DNA from: Onthophagus taurus
Lineage: Eukaryota; Arthropoda; Insecta; Coleoptera; Scarabaeidae
Assembly: GCF_036711975.1 (NCBI RefSeq)
Contig: NW_027248941.1
Coordinates: forward strand, 496,001 to 560,000
Reading direction: 5' to 3'
DNA length: 64,000 nucleotides
Shown here: in pieces, positions 8,280 to 62,260 of the stretch
How the letters are laid out: every line of letters starts with the position of its first letter
Position numbering within the stretch: the first letter of the stretch is position 1
The notes under the pieces: generated by a model
Seen by the model: only the letters and a program-made list of their open reading frames with translations
Databases searched by the model: none
Told to the model about the DNA's origin: nothing
Position numbers and translations under genes: made by a program

Positions 8280-11200
8280 CTGTGGATATAATCAAGTTTT
8301 TTTTTTGACATTTCGCGAAAAAAATTTTTTTTTTTGACAGTTTATTAATTAAATAAATAAATAAAGAGAAAGTAATAAAGAGAAGAAATCGTTAAATAAG
8401 AGAACATTTAAGTATACCTTTTTTATTTTCACACTAATGTATACAAAAAGAGAAAAGAACTAAGAGAGAAAAAAAAATTTGGTTGGCACTATTTGCTATA
8501 ACGAAGTGAAGTTAGGGTTTGAAAAGAGGGAGACAAAAAATTGATTGTTATTAATTAATTATCTTTTAAACGGAAGACTAAGAGTTGAAATGGAAAGATT
8601 TTTCTTTCTAAAAAGATACATTAAAACATTTCTTTAATGTACATCGAGAAAACAACAATAATAACTCTAATTTACATTGTTTTTTTTTTCTAAAAAAGGG
8701 TTAACATACAGATATAAAAAGTTTTTTTCGATTTCTTCATCAAATTCCTTTTTTTTCAACGTGGGTGATAATGAATTAGTAGAAGATTAAAGACGTTTAA
8801 AAATTGACACGGTCCCATGTAAATCTCTCGAAAATCTCAATTATTTTGTTTTAATTCAGTCTTTTAGCTTAATTAATCCAATTTTTAAGAGTGTTAATTA
8901 ATTAAGTATTTTTTTAAAAAGGGGGTAACATATAAATGTACAAATATTGTGGTAAAACTCTAAACGCTAAAAAACGAAAAAATAATAATAATAATAATAA
9001 AATAGTTAATCAATTAATTAATAGCAGCAAAAAAAATATTTTTTTTGTCATCATTTTGGCTTTTTTCATAATTTTTTTTTATAATTAACAAAATCGTGTT
9101 TAATGTATCCGGTGGGCGCCTGAGGTTGTCTCCGGCGAGTCTTCTCCTCGCGATTTTACTGAAACCAACAAGAAGAAATCGTGTCCAAAAACAATTTGAA
9201 CCGAAAACAACCGGAACAACATCCAAAAAATTGCGATTTGTGCTTTGCTTTGCTATATCATGCGATTATTAACCAACAAAATCGATTAATTCAAGAAAAA
9301 TAAACAAAAAACGATAAAGTGAGGGGGTTGGTTGGAGACGATAAAGTGCGAAGTGCAAAAGTTATCAAAATTAAGAAATAAGAAGGAAAACTAATTATTA
9401 CATAGCAATAAAAAATGTTGCTCATAAGATTTGGTGTGTTATTACAAGCCGAGGCAGTGGAGGTTTTCCTTATAAAGCAATAAGAAAGAAATTCTGATGT
9501 GTCATTACAAGCCGAGGCAGTAGCTTTGTTTAATACAAAACAATAAGAAAAAGTTTTTCTATACACTTGAAAAAGTTAGGTTAGGTTGAAAAAAATGATA
9601 ACGTAATTTTAACAACGCAATAAATAACTAATTCGTTACAAAAATTGAATGTACTCACTCTGCCTTAAAAGCGTATCTTTCAGCTTCATTTAATGTGGAA
9701 ATTGTTTAATATAATTATTATAAAACGTTTTTTTGATGCAACAGGTGATTTTTTTAAAGATGTCGGTGTTTATTGACAAATCACCATGGTAACGGCAGGG
9801 TTGAAAACTTTGAAACGAAAAATTATTTTAGTCGCAAAATTTTCGTAGACTTTTCCGCTGATGGAATAAGAAATAAAACTAAAATTAGAAATTTTTTAGG
9901 CATAACCTCAAAATTTCTAGTTTTAGTTTTATTTCTAACTCAGAATGAGTTAAATGAATTTTTTTTTTAATGAAACGTCAAAAATGTCATTTGAAAAAGA
10001 CGCGTAGGAGGTAGCGCCATCTAGTAAAATTTATTGGCATTAATTAATTTTTTTTTAATTTTTAATGAATTTGTTAAAAATTCGAAGAATAACTCGTTTT
10101 AACAAAACGCACAAAGACACACGGCATAACCTCAAAATTTCTAGTTTTAGTTTTATTTCTAATCCAAAATTAAATCAGATTTTATTTAATGAAACGTCAA
10201 AAAATGTCACTTGAAAAAGACGCATGGGTGATAGCGCCATCTGTTGGGAAAACTCCAAAAATTTTTGTAACTATCTTCTCATCATGTCAAATATTTTAAA
10301 ATTTAAATTGGAGAAAATTTTATTTTCGAAAATTAGAAACGGTTTATATAGCAAATTAATACTATAGTTCGTTTTTTTTCTATAATACTTGTCGATGTAA
10401 ATTATTTAGGGTTTCTGTTGGTATTATCTAGGACCCTTATAAAATTTGTTGTTTTCATGATTTTTAGTAACATTGTCAGTAACTAATTAGTTGAGGTTAA
10501 AATACTAATAAATTTTTAGATAAATACGATTTTGACGAAGTACATATGTTATAAAAACGTGCTACAAAGTAATTACATAGAATAAAATACCTTTTCTAGG
10601 TAAGTAAATGGCAAATAAACACCCCACAACACTTTTTATGCACCTTTTCTTTTTGAATAACGAAAGCTCAAACGTCAATGTGACATATTTACTTCAAAAC
10701 ATGATAAAACAAAACTCCCTGTTAATTTTGCCAACTTTACAACAATTTGACAGGTATTATAGAAAAAAAATGAACTATAGAAGAATTGATTTTGAGATCA
10801 ACTTTAATTATATCTGCCATAAATACGTAAAAAAGTCAAATTCATTACAAACTGTCATTGTCATAAAAAATTCGACGCGTGTTGAAAACGTTTAAACATT
10901 ATCAGGTTATTTTGTTGAGTTTATGAACGTTTTTTACGTTTAATTGAAGCTAAAAGGTATGTTTTTAAGGCAAATTTAGTAAATTGACGATTTAATGACG
11001 AGATAAATAAATTAAAAAGTTAACCTAAAAAATTGAAATTGTAGAAACTTTTTTTTTAATTATAATGAGGAAATGATTGGGCGCGTTCACCAACTGTCAA
11101 CGTTTGCAAACGGAGACCAAACTGTTGGCAACATTTCTGGTGAACGCAATGCTAACTTCAAACGTGTTTGGTAAACGGCCGCCATTTTATCAATCGTATG

Positions 11201-23200: not shown

Positions 23201-26200
23201 ATTTTTAGATTTTTGCCAATAGATGGCGCTACCTCCTAATACGTCTTTTTCAAGTGACATTTCTTGACGTTTCATTAAAAAAAAATTATTAACTTATTTT
23301 GCATTTGAAATAAAACTAAAACTAGAAATTTTTTAGGTTTAGTTTTCAAAATTTCTAGTTTTAGTTTTATTTCTTATTACATCGGCAAAAAAGTCAAAAA
23401 AATACGACTAACATAATTTTTTGTTTCAAAGTTTTCAACCCTGCCGTTACCATGGTGATTTATCAATAAGCTCCGACATCCTTAAAAAAATCACTTGTTG
23501 CATCAAGAGAAAGTTTCTGATAATTATATTAATCAATTTTCGCTTTAAATGAAACTAAAAGATCCGTTTTTACGACAGAGTAAGTACATTCAATTTTTTT
23601 TAAATAGAAATTTTAAGCTATGCTTAACTCTCGTGGTTTTAAATTACTTTTAGACTTTCGCCAACAGATGGTGCGTCTTTTTCAAGTGACATTTTATTTT
23701 AACATTAAAAAATAATTTCAAAACTTACATCATCGAAATCATCCCCGCTTCCATCCTCGATCTCTTCTTGCGCGGCTTCGCAAACTCCATCATCTTCATC
23801 ATCATCTTTCCCCGAAGAAGTTTTATTCTCAAACTTAGTGATATGCTTCATAATATCCACAGTTCGGAGTTCCATCAATTCGTTTTTATCGACCGATTGT
23901 TGGACTTTAACCACTTCCTTAGCGTTACTCAAATATTTACTTTTCAAAGCATCCACCAATTTCGACGGGTTATCGACGAATTTCTCATCATCAAAATCGA
24001 CTTCGTTATTTTGGGTCTCATTTAAATCGCTTATCGGAATTTCGATTACATCTTCATCGTCGATTTGCATCTCTTTATCTTGCGGTTCCGTTAAAATCTC
24101 TTTATCGTTATCACTTTCGATGGTTTCCGTTTCCGTGGAGTCAGATTGAATTTCTTCTTCGAATTTATCTTTATCTTCAAGTAATTTAACCTCATCATCG
24201 GGATTGGATGACGAAGGGTCGATTATAAAATCATCATCGACTTTTTCAATGAGAGTAGCCTCTAAACAAACATCCGGAATTGGGTTTTTATTCCCCAAAA
24301 CGTTTTTATTTTTATTTTTATTCTCCTCCGTTGAATAATCCTCGGTGATTTCTTCTTGTGATATTTCGTTTTCGATAAACATTCGGCATTGCGCTTTAAT
24401 ATCGACGCGGCCGTGCGTAATAATCGGTTTTGGTTCGTTTAGGTTTTCGTAAATTGGTTCTGAGTTGTCTGGGGTGTCTTCTTCGAGTTTTTCGGAGATG
24501 TTTTCTTGGGTGTTATCGTTTCCTTGGGATTTTTCTTCGTTTTTTGATGAGCTACTTTCGGAGTTTTCTGCTCTAAATCCTTTTAAGAAGTCGATGTTCT
24601 CCTCTGAAGGGGTTAACATGGGGGAGGTGACGGTTTGGGTGAATAATAAGCAAGATGTGTCATCGGTGCTCAATAACATCCGATCTCGAGCCGATTTTAA
24701 GTCTTCCAAAACTTTTTTTGAATCCTCCTCCACGTTTTGATCGATTTCCTCTTGAACGATTAAGATGGGGTTGCTTAAATCTTTAACGTTTTCGTAAATT
24801 ATTTCGTGGCCGTTCTCGATGCCGTTTAAATCGTTTTTTTGAGTCTTTGTTGGTGTGATTTCTTCGTAAATATCCTCGTTTTTAGTTAAATTATAGGTTA
24901 TGTTAATTTCCTCCATTTCTTTGCTGCTTCCCGGTGGTTTAGGGACGTCGTAAATCACCTCTGAGTTGATTTCCTCGTAAATTTCTTTGTCGCCGAGGTC
25001 TTGAACCGATTGCACTTTTTCCTAGGTTAGTTTTTAAACAATTTTATTGAATTTGGCTATTTTAGGGGTCATGCGATAAGTTTGGGAGTAAGAAATCGAC
25101 AAAAACTCGGCGAGCTTTGAATAAGAATGGTTTAAAAACCGGAATTTCGAAATAATCGCGTTTTAATCGATTTTAGAAAAACAAGAATCGAGGTTATTTA
25201 CCACTCTCTCTTTAAATATAGACTCGAGATAAAAACGAGTCGATAAAGGGTCAAAAGCCCGGCGAGTTTCTGTAGGGTTAAAAAATACAACAAAAATCAC
25301 ACACTTGACTCAAACAGTGCTTTAGTCTCATATTAAATTCCTGCATGAGACTTTCCTCGAGATCGTCCTCACTTACTATTCTCGATTTCTTCACGGTCTC
25401 CGCCATCTAAAACAAATAAGAACCAAATCAGCAAGAATTAAGTTAAAAATTAAAACGGAACGTTTTGAACGAATCACCTAGCGGAGGATTTTAAACAAAC
25501 AACAGCAAAACGACAGATTGCGGACGAAGAAAACGGGTTAAAACCGTTTCAGATTCATTTCCAATTTGTAACGCTTATAACACATTTAATAATCCGTTAA
25601 TAATTAAGGTTATGTTTATCAACTGTCAAACGTTTGGAAACGTCCCGCTATTAACCGCAAACCGAATTACCTGAACGTAGCCTTTTTAATTTCCTTTTTA
25701 TCTAAATTTTCGTTCCTTTTTCGTTGTTGATGAGTAAAATATGCGAAGTTTGTGCCAAAAACACTCCTTTAAAGTACCCATGAAGAATCGCCAATGAGAA
25801 CGTTGAAAGAAAAAGAAATCCGTTCGATTCGTTCGCCGGCATTTAAATTAGATCGGTTTTACTTTCGAAAAAATCTCTTTGAACTTTGAATAAAAGAAAT
25901 GAATCCGAGTGAAACTTTAAAACATAAACCGTTTTTATTAATTTCTTATTCGGTGTAGAAATTTACGGTTAAAACTCGCGTTAAAACCAGAAAACTGTGA
26001 CGGTTTGTTGAACTGATAACGATCTTTAACGTTTTAAATCGTTCAAACTCTCCTTATAAAACAAAAAAAACCATGGAAATAAAACCCGATACAAAGACTC
26101 CATTCATTTGAGGCCCAGACGAGATTATTTATCGAGTTTACTCTTTTTTGTTATCGTTTCATTGACAAAGAAACAATTTTTCCAATAAAATGTGATTAAA

Positions 26201-29200
26201 AATGATCCTTGTAACTAAAAACCACCACGAAACGATGATCTAAGCCACTTTTTTCCTCTCTCTCCGTCTCTTTCTTGTATGTTGATTACTCCACGGCTTA
26301 AAAATAGCATGTGGAGCACCCGAGGACGGAAATAGACGGGGCCCTTTTTGTGTCCGCCGTTTTTGGCTCTAGACACCGGGAAAGCTGCATTCCGAGCATA
26401 TCTAACGATCTTCCGATCCGCTCAAAACGTTACGCGTTATGTAAATCCGCGTGAATAATCTAAAATGATTCAAAATTTGATTAAATTAAATTTTAGGTAA
26501 AATGAATCGACTTACAAATATTTATACAATTGACGTAAAAAAGATAGGTTATGTTTGAAATTTTATTACGATAAAAATCGTTTCGTGGAGTCTAAAATCG
26601 CTTTAAGCGAACGACTTGGATGTTTAAAAATGATTTTAAACGGGTTTTTTAGTTGAATCGCACGGTTTTTTGGTAAAAATTAATAATTTTTGTACGAATT
26701 TTTTCTTAAATGTCAAACGTACGATTAATATGGGGGATTACTACTAGATGGGGGTGATAAAAGAATTTAATTAATAAATTTGAAATAATTTATAAAAGTT
26801 TAATGAAAATTATGTTTATATTTTAAAAAATCGACGATTTTCGATTTAATTAAGCGTTAATATAACAAAAATGCAATAAAAAGTTATTAAATGAAATTAA
26901 ATTAATGTTTATAAATTTTGATAGATGGCGCTACTTCATCCTACGCGTTACGCGTCTTTTTGACGTGACATTTCTTGAGTTTCATTAAAAAAAATATTTA
27001 ACTCATTTTGCGTTAGAAATAAAACTAAAACTAGAAATTTTAAGGTTATAATAATAATAGTTTTAGTTTTATTTCTTATTCCATCGAAAGAAAAGTATGA
27101 AAATTTTGCGACTAAAATTATTTTTTGTTTAAAAGTTTTCAACCCTGCCGTTACCATGGTGATTAATCAATAAACACCGACATCTTTAAAAAAATCACCT
27201 GTTGCATCAAAAAAACGTTTTATAACAATTATATTAAACAATTTCCACATTAAATGAAGCTGAAAGATACGCTTTTAAAGCAGAGTAAGTACATTCAATT
27301 TCTGTAACAAATATTGCGTTGTAAAAATAATGTTGTGCATTTTTCTTAACATAACCTAACTTTTTCAAGGACTAAAACTAGAAATTTTAGTTACTTTTAC
27401 TACCAAATAGTGTTTTAATTAACTTAACCATCAATGAAAAGCTTGGAGAAATTGCTTGTTTCCACATAGCTCGAATTTAAAACATGTTTAAGAACTTCTT
27501 GGGCGTAGGATTCAACAAAATTAGACTAACGAGGAGTTAATAAGTTATTTTTAGTTAAAAATTTACCATAATTTTTAAAACAACCTAAGTGTTTTTAAAT
27601 TGACATAAAAAAGTTAGGTTATGTTATCGACTTTATCGATTAAATCGCTTTAAGCAAATAGTTTAGATGTTCAAAAACGTATTTAGACGGGTTTTTCGGG
27701 TGAATCACACCTTTTATTGATAAAATTTAATAACTAAATAAGCTGTGGGTTTTAAATGTCAAAAATGCGATTAATATGGATGATTACTACTAGATGGGGT
27801 GACTGAAAGATATTTTTTTATAAAAAAATTTAATTAAAATAATAATTGTAAAAAAAATGATGTTTTAAAGTAAATATGTTGAAAACTCCACGTTTTTCTT
27901 ATCTTTTATCTTAAAGGAAGTAAACCACTTCCTATTTATACGCAAAATTTATTCATAATACAAATATTGAAACGGGTTAGTCACGATTTTTTCTTTATAA
28001 TTAAATTTTTACTTAGCTTTTCTTTACAATGGAATAAAATTTACGGTGCAGTTCAGGTCGAGTGAAGGTCAAACAATGTATTTGGATATGCTGAACAAGG
28101 TTTGTTTATTGTTTACTCATTTTTTTTAAGGGGCCGATTACACAAACGGAAAGAAACGAATTCTTTCTTCTATTTTCGGACGATTTTGATCAATAATCCT
28201 TTTTTGTATTTAACCAAAATAGCATTGAAACATAAATCCACCAACACAAATTGTTTCAAAATGAAACGATTCTAGTTTTGAAGATGAGCCCCTTTTTTTG
28301 GAATTTGTCCAGTACGTTTACGCGTTTCTATTTAAAACGGCGCAAAATAGGGCGGAATTAAATCCGAAAATAAACTTTCTAAATCGAGATTTAAATATAA
28401 AGTAACATTTTTTGCTTAAAATGACATATAACAACTTCACGCGTATTAGTTTGTTGCTGTCATCACACTTATTACTAAATAACTTATAAAAATGACAAAA
28501 ATTCAATTAATCACACAAGTTGACATCAATTTCGTATAAATTATGTTGAAAACGTGTTATTCTTCGAATTTTTAACACATTCAATAAAAATTTTTAAAAA
28601 AATAATTAATGTTAATAAATTTTAATAGATGGCGCTACCTCCTACATGTCTTTTTCAAATGTCATTTTTTGACGTTTCGTTGGAAAAAATGTTATTTAAC
28701 TTTGAGTTAGAAATAAAACTAAAACTAGAAATTTTAGGTAATGCCGTGCGTCTTTAACGCGTGAATAATCTAAAATGATTCAAATAGTGATTAAATTAAA
28801 TTTTATGTAAAATGAATCGACTTACAAATATTTTTAAATTGACATAAAACAGTTAGGTTATGTCTAAAACTTCATTCCGAGATAAAAATCGTTACGTGGC
28901 GTCTAAATTCGGTTTAAATAAACGGTTAGGATGTTCAAAAATGTCTTTAAATGATTCTTTCGGTTGAATCGCACCTTTTTTTGGTAAAAAATAATTTTTG
29001 TACAAAAATACGATTAATGTGGGAGTGAACCACGAGATGGGGGTGACAAAAAAATTTAATTAACTAATTTGAAATAATTTATAACAATTTAATAAAAATT
29101 ATGTTTATATTTAAAAGAATCGGTGATTTTCGATTTAATTAAGCGTTAATATAACAAAATTCAATAAAATGTTATTAAAAAAAAATTAATTAATGTTTAT

Positions 29201-29955
29201 AAATGTCACTAGATGGCGCTACCTCCTACGCGTCTTTTTCAAGTGACATTTTCGACGTTTCATTAAAAAAAAATTATTTAAGTCATTTTGAATTAGAAAT
29301 AAAACTAAAACTAGAAATTTTTTAGGTTTTTTCAAAATTTCTGGTTTCAGTTTTATTTCTTATTCCATCGGCGGAAAAGTACGAAAATTTTGGGGTTAAA
29401 ATAATTTTTTGTTTAAAAGTTTTCAACCCTGCCGTTACCATGGTGATTTGTCAATAAGCACCGACATCTTTAAAAAAAATCGCTTGTTGCAACAACCGAA
29501 AGATTTATAATAATTATCGCGATTATATTAAACAATTTTCGTATTAAATGAAGCTAAAAGTTCCGTTTTTAAGACAGAGTGAGTACATTCAATTTTTGTA
29601 ACGAATTAGTAGTAAAAATGGTTGTACATTTTTCTCAACCTAACCTAACTATTTAACTCGTCCAATGACATATTATAACAACTTCACGCGTATTACTTTG
29701 TAGCTGTCATCAAATAACCTATAAAAATGACAGTTAAAATTTTAATTGTCAAATATTAATCGCACAAGCTCACATCAATTTCGTATAAATGATGTTTAAA
29801 ACGTGTTATTCTTTGAATTTTTAGGTAATAAAACGAAAATCCACAAAAAGAAAAAAAATAAAAATCCTAACCTGGGATTCGAAAAATTGTTGCTGGGACG
29901 TTGAGCCGGTTGAGGAGGAAACGGCCGCCTTCTTCACGATTTGAGTGTTGTTCAT
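7954..29955 (-). CDS. EPLIN/LIMA1-like two-LIM-domain cytoskeletal protein
   Basis: Twenty-one exons on the minus strand join in frame to about 1,356 residues: 29872-29955, 25305-25406, 23729-25021, 21287-21430, 21086-21157, 20895-20966, 20673-20759, 20439-20519, 20217-20309, 18297-18430, 18137-18231, 17984-18055, 17619-17784, 17279-17567, 16904-17224, 15101-15277, 13479-13641, 13144-13430, 13004-13072, 8149-8279, 7954-8092. LIM domains lie near residues 686-738 and at the C-terminus (about 1276-1330). Between them are charged, probably disordered regions with repeated RFxxFE/KFE motifs typical of EPLIN-like actin-binding proteins. LIM proteins of this kind bind and stabilise actin or link it to junctions; that role is inferred from family. 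The least certain junction is 13144/13072, where the frame requires the acceptor GCTAAG. A second possible start is the ATG at 25406, directly after an acceptor. Confidence 0.85.
9411..9566 (-). repeat. Two inverted copies of the ~90-bp CTGCCTCGGC minisatellite
   Basis: ATTACAAGCCGAGGCAGTG and ATTACAAGCCGAGGCAGTA occur 77 bp apart, each with AAGCAATAAGAAA-like flanks. On the reverse strand these read as the unit that makes up the array at 11575-12835 in the same intron, so a piece was copied in opposite orientation about 2 kb away. Confidence 0.75.
9575..10030 (+). repeat. Family A dispersed element
   Basis: This copy contains the landmarks of the family in order: GTACTCACTCTGCC, TGATGCAACAGGTGATT, TCACCATGGTAACGGCAGGG (9781), AATAAAACTAAAATTAGAAA with its mirrored TTTCTAGTTTTAGTTTTAT, GAAACGTCAAAAATGTCA and GTAGCGCCATCTAG (near 10012). 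It lies in the last long intron of the LIM gene. Confidence 0.8.
10120..10265 (+). repeat. Family A fragment (right part)
   Basis: It starts in the central hairpin (CATAACCTCAAAATTTCTAG) and runs through GAAACGTCAAAAAATGTCAC and GACGCATGGGTGATAGCGCC to CATCTGTTGGG. It directly follows the fuller copy at 9575-10030. Confidence 0.75.
10375..10900. repeat. Diverged repeat shared with 22330-22640
   Basis: Segments such as TATAATACTTGTC..., GTTGGTATTA..., GTAACATT...ATAACTAATTA, AACGTCAATGTGACAT and AACTCCCTGTTAATTTTGCC reappear in the same order at 22330-22640. The short open frame at 10608-10895 inside it has no family features and the repeat explains it. Confidence 0.5.
11079..11515. mobile_element. 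437-bp TIR element (GGGCGCGTTCACCA ends)
   Basis: The left end GGGCGCGTTCACCA (11079-11092) is the exact reverse complement of the right end TGGTGAACGCGCCC (11502-11515). Both ends are flanked by ATT (11076-11078 and 11516-11518), which fits a 3-bp target-site duplication. A second inner inverted pair, centred on CGTTTGCAAACG/CGTTTGCGTTTGCC-like sequence, adjoins the TIRs. The interior has no transposase; a short frame (MAEARNYLF...) near 11272 may be a remnant. The GGG start and 3-bp duplication resemble PIF/Harbinger MITEs, although ATT is not the usual TWA. Confidence 0.8.
11575..12835 (+). repeat. ~90-bp minisatellite, about 14 copies, with a GC hairpin
   Basis: The phrase CTTCGGCAGCACAGCTGCC (or CCTCAGCAGC variants) recurs near 11668, 11748, 11837, 11929, 12017, 12107, 12195, 12292, 12378, 12470, 12558 and 12650, every 80-97 bp. 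It alternates with AATAATATATCATTACTAC, AAAACATTTTTTTAAT and TTTTGTAATAAAAA. The core GGCAGCACAGCTGCC is a perfect inverted repeat with a 3-base loop. The last copies, near 12700-12835, are degenerate. It lies in a LIM-gene intron. Confidence 0.92.
13780..13955. mobile_element. 176-bp MITE-like element with 16-bp TIRs
   Basis: GAGCCTTATTCTGCAA (13780-13795) is the exact reverse complement of TTGCAGAATAAGGCTC (13940-13955). No target-site duplication is obvious and the 144-bp interior codes for nothing. It lies in the intron 13642-15100 of the LIM gene. Confidence 0.65.
14710..14775. repeat. 16-bp perfect inverted repeat
   Basis: GTGAGTTCATAAATTA (14710-14725) pairs with TAATTTATGAACTCAC (14760-14775), leaving a 34-base AT-rich loop. 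It lies in a LIM-gene intron. The rest of intron 13642-15100 shows nothing coding. Confidence 0.75.
15375..15840 (+). repeat. Family A copy, right half with GGCCG tail
   Basis: It runs from AATAAAACTAGACTAATA through TAGCGCCATCTATCGC (15520), AACTATCTTCTCATCATGTC, ACGTGTACGAGTGACTAAAA and GTGAGGTTAGGTTGTG to ACACGGCCGTTTTCGAAGAC (15797) and ATCGGCCGCCCCCG. This is the distal end of the family. Confidence 0.75.
15845..16760 (+). repeat. Family C tandem repeat, ~400-bp unit, first locus
   Basis: GTATGAAAGGAAGGGCTACC recurs near 15902, 16294 and (as GGGTTACC) 16718. Between them are ACATAAACATCGCGGTTATA, TAGCGACATCTATGAGTGTC, TTTGATGACAGTT and GAATCGATTCTTGACTTTAAA in the same order. Two full units plus a partial one lie in the LIM intron 15278-16903. 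Confidence 0.88.
18137..18430 (-). other. Exons coding the internal LIM domain
   Basis: Exons 18297-18430 and 18137-18231 encode [18 protein letters not shown] and, after the intron, [11 protein letters not shown], giving all eight zinc ligands (C-x2-C, H-x2-C, C-x2-C, C-x2-H). The next exon (17984-18055) encodes [20 protein letters not shown], a conserved-looking linker. Being internal rather than terminal, this domain gives the protein two separated LIM modules. Confidence 0.9.
18837..19023. repeat. 187-bp nested foldback element
   Basis: The outer arms 18837-18858 and 19002-19023 (GGAAGAGAAGCAG / CTGCTTCTCTTCC) pair at about 20 of 22 positions. Inside are two smaller, similar modules, GTCGCTTAGCGAC...GTCGCTAATGACA and GTCCG...CCGGACGAACGAAGTGAG...GTCCGGCAATGACGGAC, each able to fold. 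Its GC content is well above that of the surrounding intron. Confidence 0.75.
19078..19128. repeat. 22-bp hairpin arms, GGCGCTAAAGT
   Basis: 19078-19099 pairs with 19107-19128 (ATGGCGCTAAAGT / ACTTTAGCGCCAT at the core) with one mismatch and a 7-base loop. It is close to the preceding foldback and may be part of the same insertion. Confidence 0.75.
19310..20175 (+). repeat. Family C tandem repeat, second locus
   Basis: This is the same ~400-bp unit as at 15845-16760. GTATGAAAGGAAGGGCTGCC (19366) and GTATGAAAGGAAGGGCTACC (19777) bracket ACATAAACATCGAGGTTATA, TAGCGACATCTATGAGTG and TTTGATGACAGTTTTA, followed by a decayed third unit. Fragments also occur near 21865-21910 and 22120-22215. All lie in introns of the LIM gene. 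Confidence 0.85.
22330..22640. repeat. Diverged repeat shared with 10375-10900
   Basis: Ordered matches to the other copy include TATAATACATGTC, GTTGGTATTAAAATT, AACGTCAACATGACAT and AATTCCCTGTTAATCATACC. It lies in the LIM intron 21431-23728. That intron shows no coding potential other than the exons listed for the gene. Confidence 0.5.
22770..23610 (-). repeat. Family A copy, near full length with GGCCG tail
   Basis: Read on the minus strand it contains, in order, GTACTTACTCTGTC, TTACCATGGTGA (as complement, 23449), the mirrored CTAGAAATTTT hairpin, AATAGATGGCGCTACCTCC (23218), AACTATATTCTCATCATGTC, ACGTGTATGATTGACT, GTGAGGTTAGGTTG and a double GGCCG/TTCGAAGAC palindromic end at 22790-22920. 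Confidence 0.8.
23729..25021 (-). other. Large acidic exon of the LIM gene with tyrosine motifs
   Basis: This single 1,293-nt exon is phase 0 at both ends and encodes residues 63-493. It is very rich in Glu and Asp. Tyrosine motifs occur at Y77 (YEEI), Y86 (YDVP), Y114 (YEEI), Y138 (YENV) and Y253 (YENL). These match known SH2-ligand patterns: YEEI for Src-type, YDVP for Crk/Abl-type and YxN for Grb2-type domains. The exon ends in a near-continuous acidic stretch (DGSGDDFDD). Skipping it would preserve the frame. Confidence 0.8.
26440..27310 (-). repeat. Long family A copy (about 870 bp), duplicated at 28757-29600
   Basis: The left part (GTGAATAATCTAAAATGATTC, AATGAATCGACTTACAAATA, GGGGATTACTACTAGATGGG) is followed by GATAGATGGCGCTAC, GTTACCATGGTGATTAATC (27152), TGTTGCATCAAAAAAACG and CAGAGTAAGTACATTC. 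The same order and spacing is seen at 28757-29600, so this may approximate the full element. Confidence 0.8.
27360..27870 (-). repeat. Partial family A copy
   Basis: It keeps GATTTTTAAACGGG-like and GATTACTACTAGATGGGGTG (27779) segments but lacks the X-box-like core. The rest of intron 25407-29871 holds AT-rich sequence, and a further fragment lies at 28610-28745 (AATAGATGGCGCTACCTCC). Confidence 0.6.
28757..29600 (-). repeat. Long family A copy, direct duplicate of 26440-27310
   Basis: It carries all landmarks of the other long copy, including TCACTAGATGGCGCTACC at 29207 and GTTACCATGGTGATTTGTC at 29435. The two copies are in the same orientation about 2.3 kb apart within the second-last (5'-most) intron of the LIM gene. 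Confidence 0.8.
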
Positions 29956-32379: not shown

Positions 32380-32686
32380 AGTCGTTGTACTACTCATTTC
32401 GAAAACATTTCGTTTTTAAAAGTGAGTAATTTGAAGAATATACGAGGTTTAAAATAATTTTGATAATAAATATAACCGAAAGGTACGTAATTAATAAAAT
32501 TAAGAAGTAAATGAGGCTTGATTTGACATTTTTAGGTTAAATGTCATTTGTGAAATTGACAGTTAGGCTACGTTCATTTATATCTTATATCGTTTAGAAG
32601 TTGACGTAAAAGCATCAAGTTTTATTTAAGAAAAAAAGCTTTAAGCACGTTAATTAAAGGTAAAGTTTTTAATTTATTGCAAAAAG

Positions 32687-34189
32687 ATGGCTTCTTCGCG
32701 TATGAATTGCCAACAATTTCAAACCAAAATGGCAAAAAGACGTGAAAGAGATTTCCAACACCAACAAAATTGGGAACGCCAAGTAGATTATTACAAGAAA
32801 TTTGAAAAAACCAACTCAAAATTCGACGATTGGACATCTCCGAGATATTACGAATCAAACACTGAATTGGTGGATCGTTTAAAAGAAAAACGTAACAAAG
32901 AGGAGTCTTTGGAAAAACGTAGGGAGCGATTAAAAAAGTTATTTTCTGAGGATTCCGCGACGTACGAGATTGAAATGATGATGTCAAAAGCGAAACAAAT
33001 GGAAAAAGAACGTGTTAAATTAGATGATATTCCTACGGAGTTGTTAAAAGATTTAAATGTTGGGTTAAAAGTTGAAGAAGAGGAGCGTAGGAAGAAAGAT
33101 GCTGAGTTAAAGTTGTATCAACGATGGAGGAGGGATAATTTAGTTTTAAGAGATGTTGAGAGAAATAAAGGAATTAAAGATGTTAAGGTGTCTTGGTTGG
33201 ATCAACAAATTGAGAAAAGAATGGCCAAAGAAAAAGAAAAGGAAGAGTGTAAAAAGTATTTAAAGGAGCGAGATGAAAACATTCAGAAACAAAAAGATGA
33301 AGAAGAAAGGTTTAAAGAGGAAGTAAGAATCAAAAATGAGCAGTTAAAGGATGACTTAATGAAACAAATTGTTGAAATTAATTTGAAACAAAAAGAAAGT
33401 GAGGAATTAAAACGAATTGAAAAGAAAGAAATTGAAAAAAAACAAGAAGTTTTTGAGTTGGAACAAAAATTAAAAGAATTAGAACTTTACACAAGAAATA
33501 AACAAATTGCAATCCACAATTTAAAACAACACAAATTAAAATTACAAAAATATTACGCCCAAATCCAAGAGGATTTAATACAAGAACAAAACTTTGTCGA
33601 CGATTTAATTAAATCAAAAGCAACCGATTTAATACAAGACGCAAAAACAAAACGCGAAATTAAATCAACATTAGACGAATTCTTAAAATTCACTAAAGAA
33701 CAAAAAGAATTAGAGAAAAAACGCAAAAATCATCTCGATTTTATTTTCGATTCGGAACTAAAAGACGTTTTAAAAAAACAACAGGAAATATGGGACGGGG
33801 AAAACCTCGCTAGAAAAAATCTACTAAAACAAGTTTTAGACACCATTCAAAAACAAATTGACGAAAACGTGAAGAAAAATCGCGAGAAACAAAAAGAAAT
33901 TGTGAGGGATCGGGAACGCATTTTGGGGGATGTTGAACGGTACGAAAAGGAAATGAGAGATAATGAAATTAAGGAGAACGAGAAGAGATGTAGGTTAAAA
34001 GACGAAATTGAACGTGAAGTTCAACAAAAGAGGTTGAAGGAATTTAAATTGAAAGAGTTGGAGAAGAGGGATTATGATGTTGAGCTGGAAAATATGAGAT
34101 TGGAGGAGGAACGAGTTAAAAAGGAAATTGTTAAGATACAAAATAGTCATGCGCCGTTAAGATATGTTAAGAGGAGACCTTGGTATTGA
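32687..34189 (+). CDS. TCHP: Trichoplein-like coiled-coil centriolar/keratin-binding protein
   Basis: This is an intronless 500-residue protein, nearly all charged coiled coil (K, E and R make up much of it). Landmarks of trichoplein are present in order: an N-terminal RERDFQHQQNWERQ segment, LYQRWRRDNLVLRDVE near residue 145 followed by VSWLDQQIEKR, the IWDGENLARKNLLKQVL segment near residue 365, and IQKQIDENVKKNREKQKEIV after it. The length matches vertebrate trichoplein (about 500). That protein sits at centrioles and the mitotic centrosome, activates Aurora A and restrains ciliogenesis; the insect role is inferred. The ATG at 32687 follows an AAAAAG context and precedes the conserved start. 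AATAAA lies 61 bases after the stop. An intronless form beside intron-rich neighbours could reflect retroposition or intron loss. Confidence 0.85.
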   Translation: MASSRMNCQQFQTKMAKRRERDFQHQQNWERQVDYYKKFEKTNSKFDDWTSPRYYESNTELVDRLKEKRNKEESLEKRRERLKKLFSEDSATYEIEMMMSKAKQMEKERVKLDDIPTELLKDLNVGLKVEEEERRKKDAELKLYQRWRRDNLVLRDVERNKGIKDVKVSWLDQQIEKRMAKEKEKEECKKYLKERDENIQKQKDEEERFKEEVRIKNEQLKDDLMKQIVEINLKQKESEELKRIEKKEIEKKQEVFELEQKLKELELYTRNKQIAIHNLKQHKLKLQKYYAQIQEDLIQEQNFVDDLIKSKATDLIQDAKTKREIKSTLDEFLKFTKEQKELEKKRKNHLDFIFDSELKDVLKKQQEIWDGENLARKNLLKQVLDTIQKQIDENVKKNREKQKEIVRDRERILGDVERYEKEMRDNEIKENEKRCRLKDEIEREVQQKRLKEFKLKELEKRDYDVELENMRLEEERVKKEIVKIQNSHAPLRYVKRRPWY

Positions 34190-34499: not shown

Positions 34500-35110
34500 T
34501 TCGTGCGTCAAAGACAACTAATTCGTTACAAAAGTTGAATGTACTTACTCTGCCTTAAAAACGGATCTTTGAACTTCATTTAATACGAGAATTGATTAAT
34601 ATAATTATTATAAAACGTTCTTTTGATGCAACAAGTGATTTTTTTAAAGATGTCGGCGCATATTGATAAATCACCATGGTAACGGCAGGTCGAAAACTTT
34701 CAAACAAAAAATTATTTTAGTCATCATTTTCGTAGACTTTTCTGTCTATTAATAAGAAATAAAACTAAAACTAGAAATTTTCTAGGTTATGCCGTGCGTC
34801 TTTGACGCACGGCATAACCTCAAAATTTCTAGTTTTAGTTTTATTTCTAACTAAAAATGAGTTAAATCAATTATTTTTTAATGAAACGTTGAAAATGTCA
34901 ATTGAAAAAGACGCGTAGTAGGTAGCGCCATCTAGTGAAATTTAGTAACACTAATACACTAATACTATAAATTATTTCTCGTGGTTATCACCCATATTAA
35001 TGGTATTTCTGACATTTCGTACAAAAATTATTAATTATTACCAAAAAAAAAAGGTGCGCTTCAACAGAAAGAAACATTTAAAGACATTTTTAAACATGCA
35101 AATCAATGCA
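34500..35110 (+). repeat. Family A copy with a near-perfect 45-bp central hairpin
   Basis: The order is GTACTTACTCTGCC, TGATGCAACAAGTGATT, TCACCATGGTAACGGCAGG (34673), then the hairpin 34755-34800/34804-34848 (GGTTATGCCGTGCGTC / GACGCACGGCATAACC at the tip), GTAGCGCCATCTAGTGAAA (34921), and the far end (CACCCATATTAATGG, AAAGGTGCGC). This is the best-preserved copy of the hairpin. It lies between the trichoplein-like and recombinase-like genes. Confidence 0.88.
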
Positions 35111-35335
35111 TTTAACAATTTGAAATAATTTTATTAGTATAAACATTTTATATTTTAATGACAAAATTAAGCGCCATCTAAACGTCAGTAGATGAACTAA
35201 CTAGCCAGCTTGTGTGTATAACGCGAATTAAAACTAACATAACCAAACTAATAATAATAAAAATGTTTACATCAAAAAACGTAATTATTAAACGAATAGT
35301 ATTGTTAACACGAGTTTAAATTAGTAACTAATATT

Positions 35336-36834: not shown

Positions 36835-37390
36835 CGTCGATGAAATAAAACTAAAACTAGAAATTTTAAGGTTATGCCGTATTTCTAGTTTTAGTTTTAT
36901 TTCTAACGCTGGACGAGTTAAATGGTACTTGAAAAGGTTAGGTTAGGTTGTTAAAAACGTACAACATAATTTTTACAACGCAATAACAACTAGTTCGTTA
37001 CAAATAGTGAATGTACTTACCCTGCCTTAAATACGGATCTTTCAGCTTCATTTAATGCGAAAATTGTTTAATATAATTATCAAAAACGTTCTTTTTATGC
37101 AACAAGTGATTTTTTTAAAGATGTCGGCGCTTATTGATACATCACCATGGTAACGGCAGGTTGAAAACTTTGAAACCAAAAATTATTTTAGTCGCAAAAT
37201 TTTCGTACTTTTCTGTCGATCTAATAAGAAATAAAGACGCACGGCATAACTTAGAAAATGTCTAGTTTTAATTTTATTTCTAATTCAAAATGAGTTAATT
37301 CTTTTTAAATGAAGCGTCAGAAAATGTCATTTCAAAAAGACGCATGGGAGTGAGCGCCATCTAGTGAAATTTAGTAACATTAATTATTTT
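36835..37390 (+). repeat. Family A copy upstream of EFTUD2
   Basis: It begins with a collapsed hairpin (AACTAGAAATTTTAAGGTTA ... TTTCTAGTTTTAG), then GTACTTACCCTGCC, TCACCATGGTAACGGCAGG (37142), GACGCACGGCATAAC and GAGCGCCATCTAGTGAAA (37351). It ends about 240 bp before the EFTUD2 start codon. Confidence 0.8.
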
Positions 37391-37628: not shown

Positions 37629-45425
<7,797 letters not shown>

Positions 45426-45447
45426 ATGGTTTTCATAAGAAATTTTT

Positions 45448-45545: not shown

Positions 45546-48500
45546 TTAAATCAAACCCATCAAAACTTTACATTTCAAATTAAGAACCGCCTTTAATTCC
45601 CTCAAAGCGTTTTGCAAACTCGCCTCCAACTTACTTATAACCCCCGTAAACGTCGTCTTATCAATCCTTAACCCCTCAATTTGCTTTTCTAACATCTCCA
45701 ACGAAAACTCCTTGGCGCACCATCCATCCAAACACAACACCGTCTCGTTTAAAACATTTATTTGATTCGACACCAAACCAGATAAAATCTCTTTCCCTTT
45801 TAACGAAGAATTCGAATCGATTTTATTTTTATTTTTCGATTTATTTTTCGTTTTCACCTTTAAAGTTTCGTTACAAAGCGTTAAAACGAACGCACAAAGT
45901 GTTAACAACTCAACAAAATTAACCAAAATTTCGATTGTCGTACTTCGACTAAAATAAACATCGTCCGAAGCAATTTCCGCCCGAATCAAGTCTTTAATTG
46001 AGGTTAGAATGGTTTCGTGGTACTTTTCGATCCTCTCCAAAACGTTCGCATCCATCTCGGATTCTTTCCCAGACGAAAAATAAATAAAAACCGCAAAGAA
46101 TTCACCCAAAACTTCGAAATACGGTACTTTAAAGTACGAAATTAATCGAGATTTTAACGGTAACGATACGAATCTTTCGGTTACGTTTAAATGGGTTAAA
46201 TTTGAATGTTGCGAGTTTAAGTTTTCCCATGATTTTAACGTCGATTTTAATTCCTCTAAATGAGGTGATTTTTCTACGGAAGTTTCGCTTATTCGAGCCG
46301 TTTTAAAAGCGATCGAGAAACAATTTACCATTAAACTTCTTATTTCAGCGAAAATTTGGTTTTGTTTGACGCGCAATTTAACGCAGTCCCATTTTTCGGG
46401 GGGATTCTCAATTCTTTCTGGATCCCATGATAAATAAACACTCAAATCGCTGTTATCACTGCAACAAATTCGTTTCATTATTTTTTTTAATTTTGAGGTT
46501 AAACGTCAATCTGACATTTTAATATTTTTGAGGTTAAATGTCAATCTGACGTTTTAATATTTTGAGGTTAAACGTCAATCTGAAATTTTAATATTTTTGA
46601 GGTTAAACGTCAATGTGACGTTTAGTGATTTTATCAATTGTTGCTAACTTCATGTATTTTTTTCTAACCTCACTTTTTGACAGTTTATTATAATCGTTTT
46701 TGATCCGGTTTCATTTAATTTTGTTTTTTAATCTTCATAACCCATTTAATACATTAAAACGTAAAAAAATTTAAAAAAAAACTCACCAAGCGGCTTCCCA
46801 ATCGATTTTTCTTTCCTTAATAGTCAAATCCGCCTCGGTTAAACCATCCAAAGAAGCGCTCTGCATCAAAGTTAACACAATTCGATCCATAACCACTTGG
46901 GTATAATGAAGGCTGTTATAAAGTTTCTCCCGGAAATCCATAAATTCGTCGATTTTCCCAAATGAACCATATTTATAAACAAACGTTAAGTGATCTGAAC
47001 TCTAAAAAAAAATTTTTAATCACAAATTATTTAATTTAATTATTTATTACTAACATCTCGGTAATTAGCGACGAAAAATTTGATTGTAGTCTCGTAAAGT
47101 TGTGAAGCTATTGTAAATAATCCTGTAGTTGGTAATCGTGAGCAATGAACATAACCCAAAGAGTCCAATTGGATGTGCTTCAAATCTAAGCTCTCATACA
47201 TGGAGTGAGCACAACTGCCTCCCCCCAATTGGTGATACAATTTAACACACAACAATTTTGCGTGAAAACAACTCTTGCTATTTTTTAACAAATTCTCCAA
47301 AACCACCAACGCGCAAATCAAAGGTTCCGAACTTTGCGTCTTCATACCGATATCGTAAAGTATATGAGATGCCACTAAACCATACGGATCTGATGGTCCT
47401 TGATCAGTAACCAAAAGATCTTTCCCATAACGCTCATAACCTAGGTTATAATGACCTGTTAAAATGTTCGCGATTTCGTAGAGAGTTTCTGGTTCTAAAT
47501 GCTGATACGTCCCGCTTAAACGCGATAATTGTATAGCGCTTATGTGGCGTTGCATTTGGTCCATCTAAAACAATCATTTTTTAAAACTTTAATACATTAA
47601 TTTTTTTTTTGTGATACTTACAGTGGTTGCAATGGAATTTGAGGCAACATTTAAATCCTTGAGGAGATTTTCGCACAACAACGCACGTTCCTCCGAATTT
47701 AATATGTTTAAATAAGAGCGTAAGTCGCTAACGCAACACGGTTTATGTCCAAATAGGCGAAAATACTCCACGAAAAGCTGGGCGGGTTCCCCGAGAAGAT
47801 CGTTGATTACGTTTGAGGTGATGTTGGTTGAAGCGGTGAGGCGTTGGTGAAGGCGTTGACATAATTCGATACGAGCCAAATATGGTCCTCTTTGAGCATA
47901 ACCTAAAAAATGAAAATTAATGAGATTTGAGGTTAAGAAATGAAACGTCAAAATTAAGTGTCATTTTAAATAGTCTTTGAAAAAATTAGTTACTTTATCT
48001 TAAAAGCGAATCTTTCAACTTCATTTAATACGAAAATTGATTAATATAATCGCGATAAATTATTGTAAAACTTTCTTTTAATGTAAAAAGTGATTTTTTT
48101 TAAAGATGTCGGTGTTTATTGATAAATCACCATGGTAACGGCAGGGTTGAAAACTTTTAAACAAAAAATTTTTTAATCACAAAATTGTCGTACTTTTCTA
48201 CCAATGCAATAAGAAATAAAACTAAAACTAGAAATTTTCGGGTTATGCCGTGCGTCTTAACCTCAAAATTTCTACTTTTAGTTTTATTTCTAACTCAAAA
48301 TGCGATATTTTTTTTTAATGAAACATCAGAAAATGTCATTTGAAAAAGACGCATATGAGGTAGCGCCATCTAGTGAAATTTATAAACATTAATTATTTTT
48401 TTTTAATAACTTTTTATTGAATTTTTGTTATTTTAACTCTTAATTAAATCGCTTAGGAAATAAAACGTCAAAATTAAGTGTCATTTGAAAAAGTGAAATT

Positions 48501-50769
48501 AGTATTGGAGTTATTATTTAAATGCAACAAAAAACGTGAGACTTCGAAGACGTCGGCCGCCCCCGAGAGTACGAAACGTCCATTCTAACAAATGTGAGAA
48601 CTTAAGGTTATTACTGTTTTAGCGTCCACGATGGCCGTAGGCGACCGATGTCTTCGAAAACGGCCGTGTTAGTTTAAAACTGTGCTAAAAAATTACGTTG
48701 GGATTCCTAATCTCACTTTTCCAATACAACCTAACCTCACTTTTTCATATGACATTTTTTTTGACGTTTCATTAAAAAAAGTTTTATTTAACTCACTCAG
48801 TTTTAAAGATAAAACTAAAAAGAAATTTGCGTCATAGAACTTCGTTTTAGTCACTCATACACGTTTTACGTTATATCAAATAAAATTAAATAGTAATTCA
48901 CATTTCTTGTGGTATTAAGTACGTTTTTAGATTTTTTCCCAACAGATGGCGCTACCTCCTAAGCGTTTTTTATTTATAAGTGACATTTTGACGTTTCAAA
49001 AAAAAATATTTAATTTAAGTTTGTTAGAAATAAAACTAAAACTAGAAATTTTTTAGGTTATGCCGTGCGTCAAAGACGCAATTACATCGACAGAAAAGTA
49101 CGAAAATTTTGTGACTAAAATAATGTTTTGTTTAAAAGACATCTTTAAAAAAATCACTTGTTGCATTAAGAGAAAGTTTAAGTAATATTAATCAATTTTC
49201 GCATTAAATGAACTTGAAAGATCCATTTTTAAGACGAAGTAAGTACTTTCAACGAATTAGGTATTATTGCGTTATTCCTAATCTCATTTTTCAAATGACA
49301 TTTTTATAATCTAAAGACTTTACTAAGAACAAATTAAAGCGCCATCTATTAACGAGTGACTACAATAAGCGGTGTTTCAAACCTAAATAAAAGTAATTCA
49401 ACATTTGAACATGTTCTAACAATTAAGTTAAAAAAATAATTTTACTCACCATTAAACCCATTTTCGATCAAACTACAAATAAATTCATGCGCCTTTTCCG
49501 GACTATCATCAGCGGTAACCTCAATCTCCCCATTTCCAGTCGAATTTTCCCCATTATTACCATTCTCGACTATTTCACCACCATCCTCAATCTTTTTATC
49601 CCGCTTATTTTCACTGGATTCCTTCATTAATTCAAACACCGAGTTTAAGTACTCCATCCAAATGTTCCACTTATCTATACTGTGTAAAACGAGACAAAAA
49701 TCGTTTAAAATTATTTAATTCAATAAATTTTTAGCAATTATACTTTACCTTTCATTTAAAATCTGCTTACAATAAACATTAACCTTTTTCCAACGTTTCA
49801 ATTTCACGAAAAATCGCAATCGATCGAATTGAATCGCACCGTTCAACAATTTATCACCCAAAGGTGTTGTTAAAAACGTCAAAATCTCCTGGTATTTCCC
49901 TTGTAAGTCTAAAATGTGCACATAAAGGTGACCTTCGTGTTCTCCTTCAGCTGATTTATTTTGCTTATCTAATAATTTCACCATCATACGTTCAGCTAAG
50001 TTGAGAAGTAGAGATCGTTTTTGATCATCTTTTGAGTCATCATAACTCCGCGTCGCTTGTAAAACGTTGCTCATAACAGCCCAAGTGTAATAAGGGGATC
50101 TAGGTTTTAATTTGTATAAAGCCATTGCGACTCGTTGTTGTTCTTTAAAATTGTTTACACGCACATACGACATAAAAAGATGTGTGTACAGTTCTTCACT
50201 GGTCTTATCCACTTTTAAAGCTGCTTCATAAAGTTTACAAATGTTTTCAACTAAAAAAAATTAATAAATTATTGATATAATTAAAATATTTTTTTTAACT
50301 AACATTCATTTGATTCTTTGTAACAAATTGAGATGGCCTGTAACGTCGCATCATCCGTGGGGCACTCATTGACCAATGCTTCCAAGATAACCTTCGAATC
50401 TCCAGCTTTCCCCAATCGTAATAAAGCGACCGCTTTTAATGCTTTGGCGCATTGTAAGTACGGCGTTTTTTTGAGAACTTTATCGCACTCCTGGAGCGCC
50501 TTTTTATGCATCCCATTATCTAACCAATCTAAAACAAGACGAAAATAAAAATTTTAACATCAAACATAACCTCAAAATGTCAAAACTCTAATTGACTTTT
50601 TTTTAATGAAATTAACCTACTTAAAGGAATCAAAGGGATAAAATCGGGTACTAAATGAGCGTTAGGCTTGGACTGAGGGTTCTTTTGTGTTATAGTTACC
50701 GTAAATTGGTCGTAATCTTCGTTCCATGATCGATGTGTCCCGCACGTGAGTTAACTTCGAAGTAGACAT
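45546..50769 (-). CDS. NAA25: NatB auxiliary subunit NAA25 (psidin homologue)
   Basis: Eight exons on the minus strand (50700-50769, 50304-50528, 49749-50250, 49450-49679, 47622-47902, 47055-47564, 46787-47001, 45546-46458) join in frame to 981 residues, against 972 in human. NAA25 is the TPR-type scaffold that anchors the NAA20 catalytic subunit to the ribosome for acetylation of Met-Asp/Glu/Asn N-termini. Family landmarks are the start region MERRLRPIYDWLDNG, the TPR blocks LQCAKALKAVALLRLGKAGD and ELYTHLFMSYVRVNNF, FGHKPCCVSDLRSYL, SLDLKHIQLDSLGYV and, in the last exon, DNSDLSVYLSWDPE, which aligns with DLNVFFSWDPK of the family. The last exon starts after TTTGTTGCAG at 46459; an ATG at 46478 that would make it look like a separate 310-residue gene lies in the intron. 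Confidence 0.93.
47940..48400 (+). repeat. Family A copy in NAA25 intron
   Basis: It contains AATGAAACGTCAAAATTAAG at its start, AAAGTGATTTTTTTTAAAGA, TCACCATGGTAACGGCAGGG (48127), the TTCTAC/CTAGAAA hairpin and GTAGCGCCATCTAGTGAAA (48361). Confidence 0.8.
48460..49270 (-). repeat. Family A copy, opposite orientation, same NAA25 intron
   Basis: Read on minus it contains the end module GATGTCTTCGAAAACGGCC (48643) with its mirror GACGTCGGCCGCCCCCGAG (48549), GTTTTAGTCACTCATACACG, CCAACAGATGGCGCTACC (48945), CTAAAACTAGAAATTTTTT and AAGTAAGTACTTTC. The X-box-like core is deleted here. It forms a long inverted pair with the copy at 47940-48400. Confidence 0.8.
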
Positions 50770-51700: not shown

Positions 51701-51709
51701 AATGTAAAC

Positions 51710-60628: not shown

Positions 60629-60984
60629 CGAGAAAGGTAATTTAGAACGATTATAAAGTGGAATGAGTCGGATTGGAAGCGAATGTTGACCCAACACGTC
60701 GACTTAGACCCTTACTTTATTCCTTACCAAACCGTTAGTACCATAATTTAACAGTATTTTGTTCTTTTCGTTTACTTTTTATAGGTTATGTTCTTTTTTT
60801 GTTTACAATTTCGTTTTGTTAAGACTTGGGGGTTAATTTTTTTCTAAGTAGATGGATTTTAAGTAAAACAAATAATATTTTCGATTGTGATTTCGCTAAT
60901 TTTGATGTAAATATTTAAGTTTTTATTCTAAGATCGTTTTGCAAGTCTTCAAACGACTTATCGAAGTACATATTGATTATAAAT

Positions 60985-62260
60985 ATATATATAATATGAA
61001 TTAGGAGGTAATTCGAGTTTTAGCCTACGAGTTATAAGTAAATTCTAATTAAAACGAACGATATTCCGATTTAAAACTGTATTTATTGATGTCTAAATAG
61101 ACTAAATAACGATTTTTTGAGGTTATAACCAGTTTAATAACGATTTATAGAAAGGAAATTGGTTGTAACTTAAAATTACTATTACTACATTAATTTCGTT
61201 GGTTTTAATATATCATTAACCAAAATCTTATTATTTTGGGTTTTATTCAATAACCTAAAATAAACCTAACCTCACATTTCACCAAATTCTATTTCTCCAC
61301 TTCCTTAAATTATATTTTAATAATTTAATTAATCAATTTAAATCCAAAACTTGATACATTAATTAATAATAATTCAAATTATTATTATATTTTATTATTA
61401 TTACATTAATAAAAAATGTCGATGAGCTTAAGTTGGTTAGAAATCACCATGGTAACGGCAGGTTGCAAACTTTTAAACAAAAAGTTATTTTAGTCACCAA
61501 ATTTTCCTAGAATTTTCTGCCGATGTAATAAGAAATAAAACTAAACTAGAAATTGTCTCAAAATTTCTAGTTTTATTTCTAACACGAAATTAAATAAAAT
61601 TTTTTTTTAATGGAACCTCAAAAAATGTCACTTGAAATAGACTTAAAGGAGATAACGCCATCTATTGGAAAAAATCTAAAAGTAATTTATAACTATCTTC
61701 TCATCATGTCAAATATTTTAACGTAATTTAAAACCATGAGAAACGCGAATTACGATTTGATTTTTTTGGTATAACGTGTATAAGTGGCTAAAACGGACTT
61801 CTATGGCGCAAATTTCTTTTCTAAAACTGATTGAGTTACAAATTTTTTTTATGAAACGTCAAAAAAAAGGTCATTTGAAAAAGTGAGGTTAGGTTGTGTT
61901 TGAAAAGTGAGATTAGAACCTCAAGAGACTTATTGATTATAAAATAAGAGGTAATTCGAGTTTTAGCCTACGAGTTCTAATTCTAATTAAAACGAACGAT
62001 ATTCCGATTTAAAACTGTATTTATTGATGTCGAAATAGATTAAATAACGATTTTTTGAGGTTATAACCAGATAAATAATGATTTATAGAAACGAAATTGG
62101 TTACAACTTAAAATTACGCATTAATTTAGTTGGTTTTAATATATCATTAACCAAAATCTTATCATTTTGGGTTTTATTCAATAACCTAAAATAAACCTAA
62201 CCTCACATATCACCAAATTCTATTTCTCCACTTCCTTAATGAGTTTGGGGTAATTATATT
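60985..62260. repeat. ~320-bp direct duplication flanking a family A copy
   Basis: The segment AGGTAATTCGAGTTTTAGCC ... AACGAACGATATTCCG ... TTTTGAGGTTATAACCAG ... TAAACCTAACCTCACAT occurs at 60996-61315 and at 61940-62245. The family A copy lies at about 61430-61920 (TCACCATGGTAACGGCAGG at 61446; ATAACGCCATCTATTGG at 61651), between the two copies. The duplication follows the CSP gene. 3' UTR of CSP occupies an unknown part of 60629-60985. Confidence 0.85.

What the first reader, a model, noticed from the sequence alone, without database searches (positions are those of the whole stretch)
9575..61920. Dispersed family A elements carry an RFX X-box-like core
The sequence TCACCATGGTAAC appears in about seven plus-orientation copies (9781, 34673, 37142, 43779, 44711, 48127, 61446) and, reversed, in at least three (23449, 27152, 29435), with a shorter match near 7468. 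It agrees with the RFX/DAF-19 X-box pattern RYYNYY-AT-RRNRAC. The surrounding sequence has diverged more than this block. RFX factors switch on ciliary genes, and one copy lies just downstream of a trichoplein-like gene, which is a centriolar protein. A mobile element spreading X-boxes would be a notable regulatory system. The conservation may instead reflect something the element itself needs, such as replication or integration.
Basis: partly seen in the sequence, partly recalled or inferred. Interest (0 to 1): 0.7.

Follow-up and report, generated by a model that had tools for sequence, protein, structure and literature searches.

The report
RFX-type X-boxes in several transposon families
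A short DNA word that fits the binding site of RFX, the transcription factor of cilia genes, is the best-kept part of a repeat in this animal genome and recurs in several other repeat families, which suggests that mobile DNA here has repeatedly adopted one host regulatory site.

Summary
The window has 11 exact copies of TCACCATGGTAAC (7 plus, 4 minus), always as ATCACCATGGTAAC, which fits the tightest Drosophila RFX pattern RTNRCC-N1-3-RGYAAC. In 29 family A copies picked by upstream flank, this 14-mer has 1 substitution in 406 site-copies against 5-16% elsewhere, lowest of 340 windows (tied with three overlapping ones). Private substitutions number 1 against about 9 expected. The genome holds 373 exact cores (reversed control 16); of 91 instances read, 79 belong to family B, a tandem-unit element with inverted ends and different flanks. 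A stricter X-box pattern excluding this core occurs 1,805 times (reversed control 44), many in further repeat families (C, D, E) with unlike flanks. The host encodes RFX DNA-binding domains. An RFX-type site shared by several repeat families is the best reading. The ciliary-gene story is not supported: one of 11 copies lies near a candidate ciliary gene, and family A is clustered (31 of 40 places found lie in 200 kb of contig C16). RFX binding is untested; what the site does for the elements is inferred.

The parts
7468..7481 (-). X-box-like 14-mer ATCACCATGGTAAC in a short family A copy
9780..9793 (+). X-box-like 14-mer in a family A copy (copy about 9575-10060)
23446..23459 (-). X-box-like 14-mer in a family A copy
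27150..27163 (-). X-box-like 14-mer in a family A copy
29434..29447 (-). X-box-like 14-mer in a family A copy
34670..34683 (+). X-box-like 14-mer in a family A copy, about 0.5 kb downstream of the trichohyalin-plectin-homology ORF
37141..37154 (+). X-box-like 14-mer in a family A copy, about 0.5 kb upstream of an ATG at 37629 that I read as the start of the EF-Tu-type GTPase gene
   Evidence: the first exon is my reading of the sequence
43776..43789 (+). X-box-like 14-mer in a family A copy; lies between stretches that I read as exons of the EF-Tu-type GTPase gene
   Evidence: exons by eye
44710..44723 (+). X-box-like 14-mer in a family A copy in the same presumed intron
   Evidence: exons by eye
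48126..48139 (+). X-box-like 14-mer in a family A copy, about 0.6 kb from the NatB-subunit ORF (47040-47564, minus)
61443..61456 (+). X-box-like 14-mer in a family A copy with a truncated left part
49000..49300 (-). Stretch holding a family A copy that lacks the core; the deletion junction lies near 49,138
32654..34189 (+). ORF, trichohyalin-plectin-homology (trichoplein-like) protein; the only ciliary candidate noticed near a copy
   Evidence: PDB chain 8snb_4F, E 6.1e-11; no Pfam match at E 0.001

Best explanation
ATCACCATGGTAAC is an RFX-type X-box carried as a constrained internal site by family A and, independently or by very old descent, by family B; other spellings of the X-box sit in at least three further repeat families (C, D, E). 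Shown: the motif fit, the strong conservation in A, variable positions falling mostly where the RFX consensus allows change, recurrence in repeats with unlike flanks, and RFX domains in the host. Inferred: host RFX binds the sites, and the binding serves the elements (open chromatin or expression in RFX-positive cells such as germline or ciliated cells, helping transposase reach them), so that elements with the site left more copies. Regulation of nearby host genes would be a side effect.
For: 11 of 11 window copies with a core fit RTNRCC-N2-RGYAAC (consensus read in PMC2375033). Family A, 29 rows selected by upstream flank: 1 substitution in 406 site-copies in the 14-mer, against 94 in 1446 in the 50 bases upstream, 46 in 918 at +18 to +50 and 402 in 2658 at +50 to +150 (coordinates from the 14-mer's first base); lowest of 340 windows, tied with three overlapping ones. 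The single change (C3T) stays inside the consensus. Private substitutions: 1 observed, about 9 expected, P about 0.001. 373 exact cores against 16 for the reversed control; 4.5 expected from composition. Families A and B share it with different flanks; the best A-B local alignment centres on the core, score 45 against a maximum of 43 in 500 shuffles. Strict X-box GTNRCCATRGNAAC: 1,805 places, reversed control 44, everted half-sites 140. Flanks read at 10 of these places show three further families, with 3 of the 10 unassigned; flank-only patterns give 448 D and 565 C copies. In A and B, 15 of 21 substitutions stay inside the consensus (tallied by eye; P 1e-4 if independent; 4 of 10 distinct kinds, P 0.04). 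RFX DNA-binding domain over the Pfam cut-off at three places.
Against: No binding or expression data. The left half AATCACC is not the usual RFX half-site (GTTRCC, recalled) and is identical in A and B, which RFX alone would not require. The conserved block of A runs 4 bases past the X-box (ATCACCATGGTAACGGCA: 2 substitutions in 522 site-copies), and a block about 30 bases upstream is nearly as conserved, although it lies inside the query used to pick copies. At least one copy has lost the core by deletion, and one row lacking the region (L085) was dropped. For B no flank-independent conservation test was made: the 100 listed copies all had perfect flanks. C, D and E were found with a pattern built from the X-box, so their fit is not independent evidence. 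One D copy with perfect flanks, read in L011, has its AAC broken. Two of the three RFX-domain matches carry a stop in the open frame. Non-coding elements do not need a promoter to move. The everted control also has a recurrent spelling, so a moderate-copy repeat can inflate a pattern.
Confidence: 0.6

Rival explanations
1. The core is a site read by the elements' own machinery (transposase or recombinase binding, or an assembly site), shared by A and B through common ancestry; the likeness to the X-box is partly coincidence.
For: A and B share 15 identical bases including a left half that RFX does not demand, with weak similarity running on past it. Conservation extends beyond the X-box. B has inverted ends and, in one complete copy, a 9-bp target duplication, so a transposase acts on it. 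Crypton-like recombinase ORFs are present.
Against: In B the core is internal, repeated in units of about 350 bp, and not terminal. C, D and E carry other spellings of the X-box with unlike flanks, which one transposase would not explain. Substitutions lean towards RFX-tolerated changes.
Confidence: 0.22
2. Old shared ancestry and chance: one ancestral repeat had the word, A and B descend from it, and C, D and E are unrelated repeats that hold X-box words by luck among many repeat families.
For: A few high-copy families can create large counts; the everted control pattern also has one recurrent spelling. The core is the best A-B match.
Against: Chance ancestry does not predict 1 private substitution where about 9 are expected or a divergence tied lowest among 340 windows. 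The control words reach at most 140 against 1,805.
Confidence: 0.13
3. The copies are host regulatory sites that turn on ciliary genes.
For: Copy-by-copy constraint in family A; one copy lies 0.5 kb downstream of a trichohyalin-plectin-homology ORF.
Against: No ciliary candidate was noticed beside the other ten window copies (ORFs of at least 130 aa, 10 of 18 scanned with Pfam). 31 of the 40 family A places found lie in 200 kb of C16. The nearest listed strict X-box to the B9-domain gene on C1 is 267 kb away; the other two B9 loci could not be compared.
Confidence: 0.05

Closest known systems
RFX/DAF-19 X-box of ciliary promoters (Drosophila screen, PMC2375033; passages and section 9 read)
   Same: Core fits RTNRCC-N1-3-RGYAAC, the least degenerate pattern used there; host RFX domains present.
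   Different: Sits inside repeats, in or between genes, not mainly at ciliary genes; left half is AATCACC rather than GTTRCC (the latter recalled).
CERP2 and CELE2 miniature transposons of Caenorhabditis with HIM-17-regulated promoters (PMC9757741; abstract and section list read)
   Same: Non-coding transposon families tied to one host factor.
   Different: There two related families were co-opted as germline promoters, with functional data; here several families with unlike flanks carry an RFX-type site and no function is shown.
Pig SINEs with RFX sites (PMC10471783; one passage read)
   Same: Transposable elements reported to amplify RFX-family sites.
   Different: SINEs of a mammal; here elements of an insect-like genome, with site-level conservation measured in one family.
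TIR DNA transposons with 9-bp target duplications (comparison recalled, no call)
   Same: Family B copy L047 has ends CAAGGTCCGTTGAGTA / CAATGTCCGTTGAATA (14 of 16 alike) and the duplication GTTACAAAT.
   Different: No transposase was identified; internal tandem units of about 350 bp.

Membership tests
RFX X-box | Fits a published insect X-box consensus (RTNRCC N1-3 RGYAAC) | tested here: met
   11 of 11 window copies with a core; consensus read in PMC2375033
RFX X-box | Fits the strict nematode form GTHNYYATRRNAAC (recalled) | tested here: not met
   0 matches in window; first base is A, not G
RFX X-box | More frequent than matched control words | tested here: met
   373 against 16; 1,805 against 44 and 140
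RFX X-box | More conserved than surrounding sequence | tested here: met
   family A, 29 rows; not tested without flank bias for B, C, D, E
RFX X-box | Variation confined to positions that RFX tolerates | tested here: inconclusive
   15 of 21 substitutions, P 1e-4 if independent; 4 of 10 kinds, P 0.04; transitions only, P 0.06
RFX X-box | Host encodes RFX | tested here: met
   PF02257 over cut-off at three places, two of them with a stop in the open frame
RFX X-box | Bound by RFX in vitro or in vivo | not testable with these tools
   needs EMSA or ChIP
Ciliary-gene regulatory site | Located at ciliary genes | tested here: not met
   window only: 1 of 11 copies near a candidate; family A clustered on C16
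TIR DNA transposon (family B) | Inverted ends and target-site duplication | tested here: met
   one complete copy, L047
TIR DNA transposon (family B) | Transposase of an autonomous partner | not tested

The most novel reading that the evidence does not exclude
Several unrelated repeat families of one genome have converged on the X-box because host RFX binding improves their own spread, and in the C16 cluster the family A copies, many pairing an X-box with a CTCF-like AGCGCCATCTA word about 225 bases downstream, are now kept copy by copy as a regional array of RFX-bound chromatin sites.
Probability: 0.12. Interest if true: 0.85.

Novelty: new variant of a known kind. Interest (0 to 1): 0.58.

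Why it matters
Transposons that spread a host factor's sites are known. Several families with unlike flanks sharing one host motif in a single genome would point to a selective advantage for the elements and would give roughly 2,200 sites (1,805 plus 373; several can lie in one insertion) in which to test whether a ciliogenesis factor is exploited by mobile DNA. It would also warn that X-box scans for ciliary genes in this lineage pick up many transposon copies.

Tried and rejected
Kozak or start-codon reading of CACCATGG: the frames after ATG in A and B soon stop and differ (read by eye); not pursued. Recombinase crossover site: the Crypton-like ORF at 35309-36207 suggested it, but B's core is internal and B has inverted ends. 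Common origin of A and B over their full length: only the core alignment exceeds shuffles; the next blocks score 33, 29 and 24 against a 95% null of 35. Paper searches for RFX or X-box together with transposable elements: held 0 papers, 60 and 71 held 1 each, 66 held 19 of which 12 were listed; from titles and abstract starts I saw no insect case, and passages were read in two of the listed papers (the second holds the term only in a reference). 'Not in print' is therefore limited to that library and those terms. The RFX matrix scan asked for was replaced by published consensus patterns, as no matrix was at hand.

Full report
Observation. The window has 11 exact copies of TCACCATGGTAAC, 7 plus and 4 minus, each preceded by A. 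All 11 fit RYYNYYATRRNRAC and the tighter RTNRCC-N2-RGYAAC, the least degenerate of the patterns used for Drosophila RFX targets (PMC2375033, passages and section 9 read). None fits GTHNYYATRRNAAC. The window lies at C16:496001-560000 of a 290.8-Mb genome.

Genome-wide. The 13-mer occurs 373 times, its reversed control 16 times. Reading 40 fetched places plus the window gave 91 instances: 11 of family A (the window), 79 of family B and one with flanks of neither kind (L017). These fetched places come from contigs C1 and C2 only. Family B reads TTTGGATCTTA-ATCACCATGGTAAC-CGAGTCAAGTTGGATAACC; neighbouring cores are mostly 333-370 bases apart, and arrays in L034 have a 355-base period. Flank-only patterns give 317 B and 38 A copies. 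One complete B copy (L047) has inverted ends CAAGGTCCGTTGAGTA (14 of 16 alike) and the 9-bp duplication GTTACAAAT. A is regional: 33 of 40 places found by an upstream query are on C16, 31 of them within 376-577 kb; by the flank pattern 29 of 38 are on C16, 27 of them in that span.

Conservation test. The 40 places were picked by bases -146 to -15, without the core. The 30 best were fetched and aligned. One row (L085), which lacks the region, was dropped. In 29 rows the 14-mer has 1 substitution in 406 site-copies; upstream 50 bases 94 in 1446; +18 to +50 46 in 918; +50 to +150 402 in 2658 (coordinates from the first base of the 14-mer). It is the lowest of 340 windows, tied with three that overlap it, and 13 of 14 columns never vary against 59 of 331 outside (Fisher P 7e-9, which ignores relatedness). 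Substitutions seen in one copy only: 1 against about 9 expected, so the constraint is not explained by shared subfamily history alone. Against this: the block runs on to GGCA, and a copy near 49,138 has lost the core by deletion. Of the 10 places not fetched, one search shows an intact core at three and the window at one, the window shows the deleted one, and five are unknown. For B no test free of flank selection was made.

Is it RFX? Among 100 listed B copies with perfect flanks (of 317) and 38 A copies, I counted 21 substitutions in the 14-mer (by eye from the listings); 15 stay within RTNRCC-AT-RGYAAC (P 1e-4 if independent). By distinct kinds it is 4 of 10 (P 0.04; transitions only 0.06). 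A stricter pattern that excludes this core, GTNRCCATRGNAAC, occurs 1,805 times against 44 for its reversed control and about 61 expected from composition. Everted half-sites give 140, and their reversed control 44. By eye the first 100 rows (96 places) hold a few recurring spellings; nine neighbouring pairs are under 1 kb apart. Reading about 165 bases at 10 places showed family D (three copies with shared flanks), family C (two copies; one with inverted ends), family E (the two arms of one pair), and three places not assigned. Flank-only patterns then gave 448 D copies (reversed control 6) and 565 C copies (reversed control 0). On C1 up to 16.2 Mb, 8 of 10 perfect-flank D places and 3 of 4 C places coincide with a strict X-box; one of the two D places that do not, read in L011, has one change, which breaks the AAC. 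The host has the RFX DNA-binding domain at three places over the Pfam cut-off, two of them with a stop in the open frame.

Reading. The most economical account is an RFX-type site kept by several repeat families. That host RFX binds it, and that this helps the elements, is inference. A transposase or other element-encoded reader of the core is the main rival for A and B, because they share a left half that RFX does not need; it does not explain C, D and E. The ciliary-gene idea fails on place as far as looked: one of 11 window copies lies near a trichohyalin-plectin-homology ORF, the other genes identified are of other kinds (10 of 18 ORFs scanned), and family A is regional. The CTCF-like word that accompanies many A copies is not better kept than its surroundings (15%).

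Known precedents. CERP2 and CELE2 in Caenorhabditis gave rise to HIM-17-regulated promoters (PMC9757741, abstract read), and pig SINEs are reported to amplify RFX-family sites (PMC10471783, passage read). What would be new is one host motif in several families with unlike flanks in one genome, with site-level conservation measured in one of them.

Changes made on checking. The odds of the boldest reading went from 0.15 to 0.12 because the CTCF-like word shows no extra conservation.

Noticed in passing
window, 22 places, e.g. 10014, 34925, 37354, 48363, 55963: GCGCCATCT[A/G] occurs 22 times against 0.1 expected, many inside family A about 225 bases after the core (15% divergence there) and others in unlike contexts. 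It resembles the insect CTCF motif as I recall it; the motif was not checked (paper not held).
   Followed up: partly
window 35309-36207: ORF pair with a weak phage-integrase N-terminal (SAM-like) match below the Pfam cut-off; the second part has 81 matches in the genome including itself, the next at 52% identity on C14. The two parts look like exons of a Crypton-like recombinase gene (recalled likeness).
   Followed up: partly
window 9576, 36938 (plus) and 29639 (minus): Three family A copies carry GTTAGGTTAGGTTG near their left end, about two insect telomere units (recalled); TTAGGTTAGG occurs 3 times against 0.1 expected.
   Followed up: partly
window 15799, 22902, 44300, 44413, 48651: GGCCGTTTTCGAAGA-type arms, in part as inverted pairs, lie near several family A copies.
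   Followed up: no
window 417-5020 and 40132-42552: Tandem arrays with about 204- and 372-base units; the first holds AGCTCCATCTATTGG, close to the CTCF-like word.
   Followed up: no
C1:284264, 580410 (L097, L098): Family C holds CCAATGAGA shortly upstream of its X-box, an NF-Y-like word next to an X-box as in MHC class II promoters (recalled).
   Followed up: no
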